64,000 nucleotides of DNA from NCBI RefSeq assembly GCF_007474545.1, contig NZ_VKOG01000004.1, positions 310,001 through 374,000 of the forward strand, written 5' to 3'. Below the pieces are notes generated by a model. The model searched no databases and was not told the DNA's origin. It worked only from the letters and a program-made list of their open reading frames with translations. Made by a program: the position numbers and the translations under genes. Shown here piece after piece: positions 30,796 through 36,985 of the stretch. Source of the DNA: Chryseobacterium binzhouense (GTDB taxonomy: Bacteria > Bacteroidota > Bacteroidia > Flavobacteriales > Weeksellaceae). Position 1 is the first letter of the stretch. Each line of letters opens with the position of its first letter.

Positions 30796-33700
30796 ATGAA
30801 AAAAATAATCATTCCTATAAGTACGTTGTTTGTAGCCGGGTTTTACCATGCACAAGCAACAAATACAGAGAATTATGTACAGACCAGAGTATATCTTGAG
30901 CCTGTAGCAACAAGCAGCTCCACCGCAAAACAGATACAGACCGTACAGTATATAGACGGACTCGGAAGACCAAAACAGGTAGTAAATGTAAAAGCATCCC
31001 CTTTAGGAAAAGATGTGGTAACCCATATTGAGTATGACCAGTACGGAAGACAGGTGAAAGATTTTCTTCCTGTTCCGCAGTCCAATACTTTAAATGGAGG
31101 TATTGTTCAGAGTCCGCTTGCCAATGCAACACAGCCAAACCTCTACGGCTCGGAGAAAATCTATTCAGAGAAAATCCTCGAAAGCTCTCCTCTCGACCGT
31201 CTGCTCCAGCAAAAGCAGGCAGGAAATGTATGGAACAATAAGCCTGTCGGGTTTGAGTACGATGCCAACAGCACCACCGATGCCGTTAAAAAATACGCCG
31301 TCACCACCACCTGGGAAAACGGAGCCACAAAATCCGGGCTTACTCAGACAGACAACTATGCACAGGCTCAGTTATACAAAAATACGGTGACCGATGAAGA
31401 TGGCAACAAAACCATAGAATTTAAAAACAGTAAAGGTCAGGTTTTGCTGGTAAGAAAAATGCTCAATGCTATCGAAAAAGCAGATACCTATTATGTATAC
31501 AATGAATTTAATCAATTAGCATGTGTCATTCCTCCTCTAGCTGCTGTTTCCGGAGCTACCGATGAGACAACATTAAACAATCTCTGCTACCAATACCGAT
31601 ACGACGGCGAAAACCGACTGGTAGAGAAAAAACTTCCCGGAAAAGGATGGGAATTTATGGTGTATGATAAAGCAGACAGACTCATCATGACGCAGGATGC
31701 CAATATGAGGAATACAGGCAAATGGCTCATTACAAAATATGACCAATTTGGAAGAGTGATCTATACGGGAATCATCGCAGGCGGAACAAGAGAAGGCATG
31801 CAGAATCAGGCAGGTAATCTGGTAATTACAGAGTCTAGACATGCTTCGGGTTTTGCTAAAAACGGTATGCAGATTTACTACAGTAACGGTTACTTTGTGG
31901 ATATAGAAACGGTATTTTCCGTCAACTACTACGACACCTACCCTTCATACAGCTTCAACCCCGCTTTTCCTTCTACGATTTATGGAAAAACAATTTTAAC
32001 GGATAATGCAGCGACATTGGGGAAAAGTACAAAAAGCCTTCCGGTAATGACTTTGGTAAAAAACATTGAAGACGATAACTGGACGAAAAACTATTCATAC
32101 TACGATACCAAAGGGAGACCTATAGGAAGTTACTCCATCAACCATCTTGGAGGATACACCAAAACAGAATCTCAGCTTGATTTTGCAGGAACCGTTTTGC
32201 AGACCAAAACTTATCACAAAAGATTATCTGCTGATCCCGAGAAAGTAATCACCGAAACTTTCACTTACGATCATCAAAATCGATTGTTGACCCACAAGCA
32301 TAAAATCGATAATAATACGGAAGAAATTTTAGCTCAGAACGAGTATAACGAATTGTCTCAGCTTAAAACCAAAAAGGTAGGCGGTAAGATTTTAGGAGGC
32401 GCATTGCAGACCGTAAAATACAAGTACAACATCAGAGGCTGGATGACACACATTAATGATCCTGACAATCTCGGGACTGATTTATTTGGCTATAAAATAA
32501 AATACAACCAGGTAGAAGGTCTGGTAACTCCCGATGCATCCGATACTGCTTTGCAGGTAATGCCGAGATACAACGGCAACATTGCCGAGATCGATTGGAA
32601 AACCTCTACTCAGGAAAATGAACCTCTGAAAACGTATGGCTATGTTTATGACGGACTTAACAGACTCTCGGCAGGGTTTTATCAAAATTCGATGTTTCCG
32701 TCAATGAGACAGTATTTTGAGAAAGTTACTTACGATCTCAACGGCAATATAAAGACGCTGCAGAGAACAGCAGAAACCTTTGGTCCGGTAGTAAGGCTTA
32801 TTGATAATCTTACGTATGATTATTATTCTGCCAACGCAGGCAACAGGCTACGGAAGGTTACAGATGCTTCGCTGAATTCCATGGGTTATCCTTATAAAAC
32901 AAATCCTGCGGACATCGGATATGATGATAACGGAAATATGTTGAATTTTAATGACAAAGGGATGTCGTCCATTCAATATAATTTTCTAAATTTACCCAAG
33001 CAGATTACTCAGAACTCTGTGGTGACTAATTACACTTACAGAGCAGACGGAGTGAAAGTGAAGAAGCTCTTTGGAACTGTGCAAACCGATTATCTGGACG
33101 GTTTTCAGTATAAATATACAGAGCCTTGGGAAGACGAGTCGGGATCTACATCTGCTGCAGAGATAAAACTGAGATTTATCCCCACTTCCGAAGGGTACTA
33201 TGATGCATTATTAGGATTGTATGTTTATAATTATAATGATCATCTGGGGAATGTAAGAATAAGCTATGCAGATTCTGATCATGACGGAAATATCAGGGGA
33301 AGAGATGAGAGAATACAGGAATGTACACCTTCAGGCTATGGTTATGATATCTGTAACGAATATTTTATTCCGGGGGAGATTGTTGCCAACAACACCTATT
33401 ATCCTTTTGGAATGCTGTTTGATCATAATGTTCAGGCTAATAATGCAAATGCTTATAAATATAAGTACAACGGTAAAGAACTTCAAGAGACAGGAATGTA
33501 TGACTACGGTGCGAGGTTTTATATGCCGGATATTGGGAGATGGGGTGTCGTAGATCCGTTGGCGGAGAAGTATACAAGAATGTCTCCGTATACTTATGTT
33601 GGAAATAATCCTTCTATGTTTGTTGATTATGATGGTAGAGATTTCGGGATGTATATTGATTTTAAAGCAGGTACAATTACGATAAAAGCAACGTATTATG

Positions 33701-34281
33701 CTGTTAAAGCCGATATGAAATCAGCAAATGGAGCTGTACAACTTTGGAATGATAAAAGTGGTAAATATAACTATACATATAAAGATGCTGATGGAAAAAA
33801 GGTTTCTCTGAAAATAAAATTTGAATTACAAACGTCTGAAGTAATACCCAAAAAGGATCAAACAGTCAAACAAGCTGTTGAAAATGCTGTATGGAATGAT
33901 TCATCTGGAGAAGGCAATTCTTACAGAACAGCAACAGACGACAGTTTTAATGACGGAATAATGGGAGTTGCAGGATTAGGCAAATATGTAAGAATAAGAG
34001 ATTCTGAATCTGATTCTGCAACAGGTACAGGAGGTCATGAAGTAGGGCATACCTTGAATGTAAGCCACAAAAATAGAGAAATAATGGGGAGTTCAGACTC
34101 TACAACTATTAATTCAAATCATGTAAAAGAAATATTAGATGTTATTGGAAGTACTCCAGATAATCCTACTAAATCAAATTCGACACAGCCTAAAGCAACG
34201 ATACATATACAGAATAATAACTTAAAAACAGATCAAAATTATGAAAATTTCAGAAATGGTAAGATTAAGGCTGCTAATTAG
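30796..34281 (+). CDS. RHS repeat-associated core protein with C-terminal metzincin-like tip
   Basis: The 1161-aa protein has a signal peptide (to about residue 20, FYHAQ) and an N-terminal DUF6443 domain (YIDGLGRPKQVV, HIEYDQYGRQVKDFLPVP). YD repeats follow (YDGENRLVEKKLPGK, YDKADRLIMTQD), then the RHS core ending in GMYDYGARFYMPDIGRWG around residue 905. The last ~220 residues differ in composition and carry HEVGHTLNVSH (1081-1091) followed by REIMGSS. This matches a zinc-binding HExxHxxxxxH with a Met-turn, i.e. a metzincin-like protease tip. It is likely an antibacterial or effector polymorphic toxin whose tip is released by the RHS shell. The glycine usual in HExxHxxGxxH is Asn here. Confidence 0.88.
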   Translation: MKKIIIPISTLFVAGFYHAQATNTENYVQTRVYLEPVATSSSTAKQIQTVQYIDGLGRPKQVVNVKASPLGKDVVTHIEYDQYGRQVKDFLPVPQSNTLNGGIVQSPLANATQPNLYGSEKIYSEKILESSPLDRLLQQKQAGNVWNNKPVGFEYDANSTTDAVKKYAVTTTWENGATKSGLTQTDNYAQAQLYKNTVTDEDGNKTIEFKNSKGQVLLVRKMLNAIEKADTYYVYNEFNQLACVIPPLAAVSGATDETTLNNLCYQYRYDGENRLVEKKLPGKGWEFMVYDKADRLIMTQDANMRNTGKWLITKYDQFGRVIYTGIIAGGTREGMQNQAGNLVITESRHASGFAKNGMQIYYSNGYFVDIETVFSVNYYDTYPSYSFNPAFPSTIYGKTILTDNAATLGKSTKSLPVMTLVKNIEDDNWTKNYSYYDTKGRPIGSYSINHLGGYTKTESQLDFAGTVLQTKTYHKRLSADPEKVITETFTYDHQNRLLTHKHKIDNNTEEILAQNEYNELSQLKTKKVGGKILGGALQTVKYKYNIRGWMTHINDPDNLGTDLFGYKIKYNQVEGLVTPDASDTALQVMPRYNGNIAEIDWKTSTQENEPLKTYGYVYDGLNRLSAGFYQNSMFPSMRQYFEKVTYDLNGNIKTLQRTAETFGPVVRLIDNLTYDYYSANAGNRLRKVTDASLNSMGYPYKTNPADIGYDDNGNMLNFNDKGMSSIQYNFLNLPKQITQNSVVTNYTYRADGVKVKKLFGTVQTDYLDGFQYKYTEPWEDESGSTSAAEIKLRFIPTSEGYYDALLGLYVYNYNDHLGNVRISYADSDHDGNIRGRDERIQECTPSGYGYDICNEYFIPGEIVANNTYYPFGMLFDHNVQANNANAYKYKYNGKELQETGMYDYGARFYMPDIGRWGVVDPLAEKYTRMSPYTYVGNNPSMFVDYDGRDFGMYIDFKAGTITIKATYYAVKADMKSANGAVQLWNDKSGKYNYTYKDADGKKVSLKIKFELQTSEVIPKKDQTVKQAVENAVWNDSSGEGNSYRTATDDSFNDGIMGVAGLGKYVRIRDSESDSATGTGGHEVGHTLNVSHKNREIMGSSDSTTINSNHVKEILDVIGSTPDNPTKSNSTQPKATIHIQNNNLKTDQNYENFRNGKIKAAN
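33463..33570 (+). repeat. RHS core repeat, copy 1 (in the intact toxin gene)
   Basis: This is the segment encoding YKYNGKELQETGMYDYGARFY and PDIGRWGVVDPLAEK at the shell/tip junction. Closely similar DNA recurs at 34803 and 36401, where it opens the displaced tips. The coding is intact here. Confidence 0.9.
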
Positions 34282-36400: not shown

Positions 36401-36488
36401 AAGTACAACGGTAAGGAACTCCAAGAGACCGGCATGTATGATTACGGCGCAAGATTTTATATGCCGGATATCGGTAGATGGGGTGTGA
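36401..36488 (+). repeat. RHS core repeat, copy 3
   Basis: AAGTACAACGGTAAGGAACT and following DNA encode YKYNGKELQETGMYDYGARFY and PDIGRWGVID. The frame is continuous through the copy, unlike copy 2. Confidence 0.9.
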
Positions 36489-36985
36489 TTGACAACAAAG
36501 CTAAAAAATACTCGTTGATGTCTCCATATACTTATGCAGGAAATAATCCTATTGCGTTTATAGATCCAGATGGAAATGAATTAATTCTTTCGTTTGCTAC
36601 TGCTACCGCAGAACAATCATATAAAGATTTAGTTAAAAATACACTCGATGGAAAGTACGAAGCTGTCTACACTCAAATTACAGGAACAACTAACAATTTT
36701 TCCGCAGATATCCTTAAAATGTTTTTGAAAAAGAAAGTTTCAATAAGTTTTAGGATAATGTTTTTCTTCGGTGTCAAGTTCGTTGGTAAGCTTAATTTGT
36801 TTCCACTACGTGTCTCATCCTCGCACCGCAAATCCTTTTGTATGGCAAATAATAAAAGACTCATCGTAGATACAGTAGGTCTAATTATACAAAATTTCAC
36901 ATTCATAAAAACAACATTCATCAAAAAAGTTAACTACTTTTGTGATGAATGTAAAATAGACAGATGCAGAAATATACTTTTTTAG
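36434..36985 (+). CDS. Displaced RHS tip remnant, probably truncated
   Basis: The frame is open from 36338 but the first ATG is the core Met at 36434. The product has the RHS core end (MYDYGARFYMPDIGRWG, then SPYTYAGNNPIAFIDPDG), then a short variable part (NELILSFATATAEQSYKDLV) to about residue 97. From there the sequence turns basic and hydrophobic without domain character (MFLKKKVSISFRIMFFF) and runs 22 bp into the next gene. The tip domain therefore looks cut off near 36715, perhaps by a deletion that removed its immunity gene. It has no own promoter or export signal. Function: silent or dead cassette. Confidence 0.6.
   Translation: MYDYGARFYMPDIGRWGVIDNKAKKYSLMSPYTYAGNNPIAFIDPDGNELILSFATATAEQSYKDLVKNTLDGKYEAVYTQITGTTNNFSADILKMFLKKKVSISFRIMFFFGVKFVGKLNLFPLRVSSSHRKSFCMANNKRLIVDTVGLIIQNFTFIKTTFIKKVNYFCDECKIDRCRNILF
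36914..36952 (+). promoter_or_regulatory. Promoter of the GH43 gene inside a 10-bp perfect inverted repeat
   Basis: ACATTCATCA (36914-36923) and TGATGAATGT (36943-36952) are exact reverse complements, and the -7 box TACTTTTG (36935-36942) lies between them, touching the right arm. A further ACATTCAT occurs at ~36899. A dimeric repressor bound here would cover the -7 element. The right arm ends 11 bp before the GH43 start codon. Confidence 0.6.

What the first reader, a model, noticed from the sequence alone, without database searches (positions are those of the whole stretch)
30796..36985. RHS toxin cassette array: one loaded shell and two displaced tips sharing a core repeat
The junction DNA that encodes YKYNGKELQETG-MYDYGARFY-PDIGRWG occurs three times (33463, 34803, 36401), each followed by an unrelated C-terminal domain; two of the three are followed by a small exported protein. 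Only the first copy is attached to a full RHS shell. This is the layout expected if tips are exchanged onto the shell by homologous recombination. No integrase or transposase is seen near the array, so simple recombination between the repeats is the likely route.
Basis: partly seen in the sequence, partly recalled or inferred. Interest (0 to 1): 0.85.

Follow-up and report, generated by a model that had tools for sequence, protein, structure and literature searches.

The report
Swappable toxin tips beside RHS gene
This Chryseobacterium locus holds one complete RHS gene with its current toxin-like end plus the worn remains of two other ends, and comparison with related species suggests that such ends are traded between genes through a short shared stretch of DNA, a known kind of system with some features of its own.

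Summary
Confirmed: three copies of an Rhs-core repeat (33457, 34797, 36395; 71-77% identical over 147 nt), each followed by a different tip; only copy 1 sits on a full shell. Corrections: copy 2 is out of frame with its tip 5' of the ATG; tip 3 is a stub running into chromosomal DNA; tips 1 and 2 both carry a conserved HExxH motif. The array sits between two conserved genes; in 17 of the 20 nearest loci no Rhs core lies there. In the genus (Chryseobacterium) 166 of 173 genomes carry cores. In a biased sample of 207 cores from 38 genomes, 24 of 25 testable tip families sit on dissimilar shells. Nearly identical tips sit behind cores whose silent sites are close to background (21 pairs), and one genome holds a 99.5% identical tip and immunity block behind two cores that diverge just before the YDYG codons. 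Exchange by recombination in the core is supported for the genus; in this window the spare units look decayed. This is C-terminal displacement (2009 model) with differences: crossing between dissimilar shells, many minimal units with a near-fixed edge about 45 nt before YDYG, and a conserved double hairpin at many cassette ends.

The parts
23809..24732 (+). left flank gene (amidinotransferase/deiminase-like; label recalled, not scanned)
25660..27315 (+). propeller-like protein with T9SS C-terminal sorting domain
   Evidence: PF18962 E 5e-11, TIGR04183 E 2e-8
27322..30789 (+). partner half-shell with an RHS repeat at its C-terminus
   Evidence: PF05593 E 1e-4; a homologue precedes 20 of 21 full shells, window included
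30796..34281 (+). full RHS shell (DUF6443, linker, core 1) with tip 1 attached
33457..33645 (+). core copy 1
33640..34281 (+). tip 1, predicted zinc metallopeptidase (HEVGH)
   Evidence: HE.GH invariant in the 6 sequences aligned, window included; relatives on other shells
34241..34765 (+). putative immunity protein 1, signal peptide by reading, overlaps the tip-1 gene by 41 nt
   Evidence: 79% identical homologue behind the same tip in G097
34797..34984 (+). core copy 2 with a one-base frame difference 5' of its ATG
34835..35584 (+). displaced unit 2: 3' part of the core and tip 2 (HEIRH motif)
   Evidence: 55-56% identical relatives in G057 and G028, also displaced
35586..36116 (+). putative immunity protein 2, lipoprotein-type signal by reading
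36360..36400 (+). relic of hairpin H2 of the cassette-end element, abutting core 3
   Evidence: RNA model hit 36360-36386, E 0.013
36395..36577 (+). core copy 3
36578..36735 (+). tip 3 stub; about its first 37 residues have a match
36818..36886 (+). possible relic of the cassette-end element at the end of the array (weak)
   Evidence: RNA model hit E 0.053
36964..38718 (+). right flank gene (F5/8 type C domain), present in 166 of 174 genus genomes

Best explanation
The locus is a polymorphic-toxin locus of the RHS type. One shell gene (30796) carries the tip in use (tip 1) with an immunity gene behind it; units 2 and 3 are tips displaced earlier, each with a piece of the core. In this genus tip and immunity gene move together behind a crossover in the core, somewhere from about 45 nt before to 135 nt after the start of the YDYG codons; this puts a new tip and immunity gene behind the shell and pushes the old ones downstream. 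A single crossover with a circle that carries tip, immunity gene and one core would give this layout. Shown: layout, homology, sharing of tips between shells, breakpoints inside the core, joint presence of tip and immunity gene. Inferred: the circle, the RecA route, toxin and immunity function, export together with the T9SS-type neighbour. In this window units 2 and 3 are probably relics rather than a ready reserve.
For: Tips on dissimilar shells: 37 of 94 tip families occur in 2 or more genomes; 17 are loaded in one genome and displaced in another; of 25 with testable linkers in different genomes, 24 have a pair on dissimilar linkers. Breakpoints: 31 pairs had tips of 70% amino-acid identity or more; 27 could be scored and 21 of these still agree at 65% or more of third codon positions in the tip (mean 80%). 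These 21 average 52, 61, 65, 69% over four bins of the core from -42 to +45 (background 47, 48, 60, 69%), 54-68% from +45 to +135 (background 44-51%), and are at background upstream of -45. Recent event: in genome G134 a tip and immunity stretch 99.5% identical over 1552 nt stands behind a full shell and at a second place about 1 Mb away; the copies agree from the YDYG codons on and differ just before them. Window tip 1 against G097: identity is 50-53% in the four bins just upstream of -45 and 73-100% in every bin from -45 to the end of the immunity gene. Displaced units keep the resident linker: similarity 0.77 within stretches against 0.43 between genomes, permutation null 0.436 +/- 0.013; 27 of 46 reach 0.85 to their own resident, 28 of 46 are closer to it than to any foreign one. 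Inside arrays, 10 of 18 near-identical repeats end within the core in both copies. Joint travel: of 60 cross-genome pairs with the same upstream immunity family 58 have different next tips; 7 of 7 tail-less pairs with immunity identity of 78% or more (three families, one of them the window's immunity gene 1) keep the spacing to the next core within 12 nt, as 13% of random pairs do.
Against: No sister strain of the same species was available, so no recombinant at this locus was seen. The window's cores are only 71-77% identical with exact runs of 26, 17 and 14 nt, little for homologous recombination now. In the window's own best pair (with G097) the core is not decoupled from the tip (86, 71, 38, 86% at third positions), and patches of 72-85% identity recur farther upstream in the shell, so that pair alone would not show a breakpoint. 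The pairs are not all independent. All-pairs tip linkage has low power because silent sites are saturated. In G134 the identity goes on past the immunity gene (99.8% over a further 836 nt), so the 3' end of that block is not at the cassette end. Six further pairs with immunity identity of 83-98% have a tailed next unit in one genome and a tail-less one in the other, so the junction does not always travel. In 19 of 46 displaced units the linker is under 0.85 similar to the resident's. No circle was observed. Toxin activity rests on motifs; Pfam matches of the tips are below cut-off and the model of tip 1 is of low confidence.
Confidence: 0.85

Rival explanations
1. Core-bounded cassettes with a specific joining site: the minimal units are made by a dedicated or site-preferring process that joins the end of an immunity gene (often with a double hairpin) to a near-fixed point about 45 nt before the YDYG codons, rather than by general recombination alone.
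For: Of 65 tail-less cores, homology to shells ends 45-66 nt before YDYG in 49, closer in 8 and farther (73-118 nt) in 8, while 79 tailed units extend 61-1005 nt; the preceding ORF of 80 aa or more stops 0-150 nt before that edge in 47 of 64 (median 58.5 nt); 14 of 52 placed double-hairpin sites abut the next core, against 1.5% by random placement.
Against: No recombinase gene was found with the arrays, though they were not scanned for one systematically; a junction made once and inherited through crossovers in the core would give the same edge; chance moves the measured edge by up to about 16 nt (null); the tail-less class is defined by a short open frame, which itself limits the range.
Confidence: 0.15
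2. The spare units are functional stand-alone genes, starting at the ATG of MYDYG, that supply toxin-immunity pairs or protection, and are not kept for exchange.
For: The tip-2 frame is open from that ATG; tip 2 is displaced in all three genomes in which it was found among 99 searched; Met precedes the motif in 203 of 207 cores.
Against: Met is equally common in attached cores (34 of 34 full shells), so it is no start-codon signature; by reading, the units lack a signal peptide; tip 3 is truncated. In Salmonella the orphan product was not detected before recombination (PMC3967940, passages).
Confidence: 0.1
3. The three repeats are the remains of three separate RHS genes after decay in place, without tip exchange.
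For: The window's copies are diverged and damaged.
Against: No shell remains precede cores 2 and 3 here; in the sample many displaced units carry only the core or a tail of the resident shell, and tips are shared between shells.
Confidence: 0.04

Closest known systems
Rhs C-terminal displacement in Enterobacteriaceae (Jackson et al. 2009, PMC2935791; passages read)
   Same: Intact gene followed by an AT-rich string of core fragments with different tips; displaced units keep the resident core's sequence at varying length; some have frameshifts; model of homologous recombination with circular intermediates.
   Different: There, displacement was limited to the same core clade and taken to need high identity. 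Here tips occur on dissimilar shells that share about 180 nt of core, many units are minimal with a near-fixed 5' edge, and many cassettes end in a conserved double hairpin.
Main-orphan Rhs recombination in Salmonella LT2 (Koskiniemi et al. 2014, PMC3967940; passages read)
   Same: Orphan tip with immunity gene behind a main rhs gene, fused by homologous recombination between shared sequence.
   Different: The shared stretch there is 522 bp at 95% identity; in this window it is about 147 nt at 71-77%. No rearrangement was observed here.
Polymorphic toxin systems and stand-alone cassettes (PMC3482391, 2012; passages read)
   Same: Tip and immunity gene replaced in one event behind a constant 5' gene body; HExxH metallopeptidase toxins with RHS repeats in Bacteroidetes are listed.
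   Different: No mapping of breakpoints or of cassette ends in this genus was seen in the passages read.
T9SS-linked Rhs genes of Apibacter (PMC8125069, 2021; passages read)
   Different: SpvB and TcdB domains are named there; Pfam found none in the two shell genes here.

Membership tests
RHS polymorphic toxin locus with C-terminal displacement | Rhs-associated core in the attached gene and in the displaced units | tested here: met
   TIGR03696 in all three, E 1e-15 to 5e-11
RHS polymorphic toxin locus with C-terminal displacement | Different tips behind the same core, shared with other genes elsewhere | tested here: met
RHS polymorphic toxin locus with C-terminal displacement | Displaced units carry core sequence nearly identical to the resident core | tested here: not met
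   In this window 71-77%. Elsewhere in the sample often met for the linker: 27 of 46 at 0.85 or more
RHS polymorphic toxin locus with C-terminal displacement | Tip is toxic and the following gene neutralises it | not testable with these tools
   Motifs and gene order only
T6SS Rhs effector | N-terminal PAAR domain | tested here: not met
   Pfam finds DUF6443 near the N-terminus and no PAAR
Tc toxin (TcB-TcC pair) | SpvB/TcdB domains in the partner gene | tested here: not met
   Pfam finds only one RHS_repeat match in 27322-30789; the two-gene shell resembles the arrangement only
Integron gene cassettes | Integrase gene with the array | tested here: inconclusive
   None seen by reading the listed window ORFs; only 9 genes near the array were scanned
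T9SS-exported protein | T9SS sorting domain in the RHS protein itself | tested here: not met
   Not in the shell genes; present in the neighbour 25660-27315

The most novel reading that the evidence does not exclude
Chryseobacterium carries an integrase-free cassette system: units made of tip, immunity gene, a conserved double-hairpin end and the 5' part of the next core move as core-closed circles between shells of unrelated type, with the core as attachment region and the hairpin end or the near-fixed edge taking part in the joining.
Probability: 0.2. Interest if true: 0.75.

Novelty: new variant of a known kind. Interest (0 to 1): 0.45.

Why it matters
The circular-intermediate model of Rhs tip exchange has been a hypothesis since 2009. 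This genus offers hundreds of units in which its predictions can be tested: breakpoints within a short core, immunity gene and next core travelling together, and recent copies within one genome. The conserved double hairpin at cassette ends is a concrete feature to examine.

Tried and rejected
A dispersed-repeat reading of the hairpin element was tested and not favoured. With an RNA model over 17 genomes, 29 matches reach 45 bits; 14 of these are sequences the model was built from, all chosen in RHS arrays. Of the other 15, 11 lie within 4 kb of a core, 3 beside RHS genes with a variant core, and one at a contig end is unresolved. Five genomes without cores had none (best 38.7 bits); but G087, which has cores, had no match at all. 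Only the 150 best first-look candidates of each genome were scored, so these lists are partial. Weaker matches, many away from cores, were not followed. Rfam (gathering) found nothing in the five loci given.

A start-codon role for the Met before YDYG was rejected: it is as frequent in attached cores. The all-pairs tip linkage looked strong but has low power, because silent sites are saturated; one search replaces it. Of the 31 pairs, 4 were dropped for too little upstream sequence and 6 fell below the 65% cut. A structure of tip 1 came out at mean pLDDT 45.5, so no fold search was run.

Sample bias: array loci were taken from the visible part of the lists, which were cut off, and favour arrays with cores close to the window's; the counts describe that sample, not the genus.
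Full report
What is there. The window lies in a 3.61-Mb genome of 16 contigs. From 25660 to about 36.9 kb, on the + strand, lie: a propeller-like protein with a T9SS sorting domain, a partner half-shell, a full RHS shell with core 1 and tip 1, a small exported protein, core 2 with tip 2, a second small lipoprotein-type protein, and core 3 with a stub of tip 3.

Corrections to the observation. Core 2 differs by one base from the others 5' of its ATG, so the peptide quoted is not continuous there. 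Tip 3 matches a relative over about 37 residues only, and its frame ends inside the start of the next gene. Tips 1 and 2 differ in sequence, but both carry an HExxH that is invariant in the relatives aligned (6 and 3 sequences), so both are probably zinc metallopeptidases; Pfam does not confirm this. The other core in this genome has a tip with a weak, below-cut-off match to Peptidase_M91.

The site. The gene on the right is in 166 of 174 genus genomes. In the 20 loci nearest by that gene, up to 16 kb upstream was read: cores are there in 3 (G053, G031, G057) and not in 17; in those 17 the left flank gene lies 0.1 to about 10 kb away (135 nt in one). G033 also has a core 3.5 kb upstream of its copy. 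G031 keeps the window's layout with another tip. In G053, the nearest by the right flank gene, a part-shell with another tip remains next to a truncated DDE transposase, and the left flank differs. So the contents of the site differ from species to species.

How tips move. I collected 207 cores in 54 stretches from 38 genomes, biased towards cores like the window's. Among 174 usable cores tips fall into 94 families; 37 occur in two or more genomes, 17 of these loaded in one and displaced in another, and 24 of 25 testable ones sit on dissimilar linkers. The strongest test is at silent sites of young pairs: in 21 pairs whose tips agree at 65% or more of third positions (mean 80%), the core from -42 to +45 is at or near background and everything upstream of -45 is at background. 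Some excess remains at -21 to 0 (61 against 48%), as expected if breakpoints vary. The window's own pair with G097 is an exception: its core agrees about as well as its tip. In G134 one stretch with tip and immunity gene, 99.5% identical over 1552 nt, stands behind a full shell and again about 1 Mb away; the two copies part just before the YDYG codons, and on the other side the identity goes on past the immunity gene for at least another 836 nt. A third copy shares 99% over 462 nt, to the end of the stretch held.

What moves together. For the window's tip 1 against G097, identity is 50-53% in the bins just upstream of -45 and 73-100% in every bin from there through core, tip and immunity gene, with patches of 72-85% again farther up the shell. 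Among 60 cross-genome pairs of displaced units behind the same immunity family, 58 have different next tips; in the 7 tail-less pairs with immunity identity of 78% or more, from three families, the distance from the immunity stop to the next core differs by 0-12 nt. Six other pairs, with immunity identity of 83-98%, mix a tailed and a tail-less next unit, so the junction is not always carried along. A circle closed through the core predicts the first pattern; two crossovers in successive cores would do the same.

Displaced units come in two forms. Many keep a tail of the shell, and this tail tends to match the resident shell: similarity within stretches is 0.77 against 0.43 between genomes. 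Others, 65 of 207, have no tail: in 49 of 65 the homology to shells ends 45-66 nt before YDYG, and in 47 of 64 an ORF of 80 aa or more stops within 150 nt of the edge (median 58.5 nt). Cores 2 and 3 of the window are of this second form; the nearest such ORF stop is 27 nt from the edge of core 2 and 275 nt from that of core 3.

The cassette ends. A conserved element of about 65 nt, a hairpin followed by a terminator-like hairpin, occurs at 72 sites in the stretches examined, all in stretches with cores and none in the 21 stretches (411 kb) without. Of the 52 sites in stretches where cores were placed by pattern, 50 have the orientation of the array, 46 lie 900-2000 nt after a core, that is about where the immunity gene ends (random placement 21%), and 14 abut the next core (random 1.5%). 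The other 20 lie in three stretches of G082 with diverged cores. A second sequence type of the same design exists; together the two follow 82 of 198 cores (random mean 34, maximum 46 in 200 trials), so more than half of the cores have neither. Base-pair covariation is slight. In the window only relics are seen, before core 3 and at the array's end (E 0.013 and 0.053). The plain reading is a terminator carried with the cassette; a part in joining is possible and untested.

Export. In 20 of 21 full shells with enough sequence, the window's included, a homologue of the partner half-shell precedes; the T9SS-type propeller protein is nearby in all 3 with 6.5 kb held, one of them the window. A link between Rhs genes and T9SS was noted for Apibacter (PMC8125069, passages). 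Export through or together with this protein is inference.

Relation to what is known. Jackson et al. 2009 (PMC2935791, passages) described the same layout and proposed circles; Koskiniemi et al. 2014 (PMC3967940, passages) showed main-orphan fusion in Salmonella; PMC5361080 (Vibrio immunity-gene arrays, passages) and PMC3482391 (polymorphic toxins, passages) give the wider setting. Differences here are the presence of tips on dissimilar shells that share a short core, the minimal units with a near-fixed edge, and the double-hairpin ends. The listings of searches of an open-licence library, each showing at most 15 papers and some cut from hundreds or thousands, named no paper on these three points in this genus; subscription papers are not held. 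A paper on Neisseria describes inverted repeats, some of them terminators built of DNA uptake sequences, at effector-immunity clusters (PMC10210955, passages), the nearest parallel found to the hairpin ends.

Verdict. The locus is one more member of a known process, with features that make it a variant worth following.

Noticed in passing
genome G082, loci L110-L112 (C1:1505000-1558000): Very large arrays: about 20 cores in one 53-kb stretch and 57 core matches in the genome.
   Followed up: partly
L148 1-3932, L149 7790-9940: RHS genes with a second core type (YKYQGQELQETGFYSFK) also end in the double-hairpin element.
   Followed up: partly
L041 12780-13415 (genome G053): Truncated DDE_Tnp_1_3 transposase whose frame runs into the double-hairpin element just before a part-shell.
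   Followed up: partly
window 36098-36331: Protein-like reading in another frame directly after the end of immunity protein 2, perhaps the rest of a broken gene (own reading).
   Followed up: no
L077 5727-7281 and 12799-14355 (genome G161): A whole unit, from 45 nt before one core to about 135 nt past the next, is repeated at 96% in one array.
   Followed up: partly
L080 about 9490-9560 (genome G086): Core edge with a short tandem run of AAGTAC units.
   Followed up: no
window 42000-45000: AT-rich stretch (GC 0.26-0.29) with two adjacent similar genes that look like AraC-type regulators; labels from reading only.
   Followed up: no
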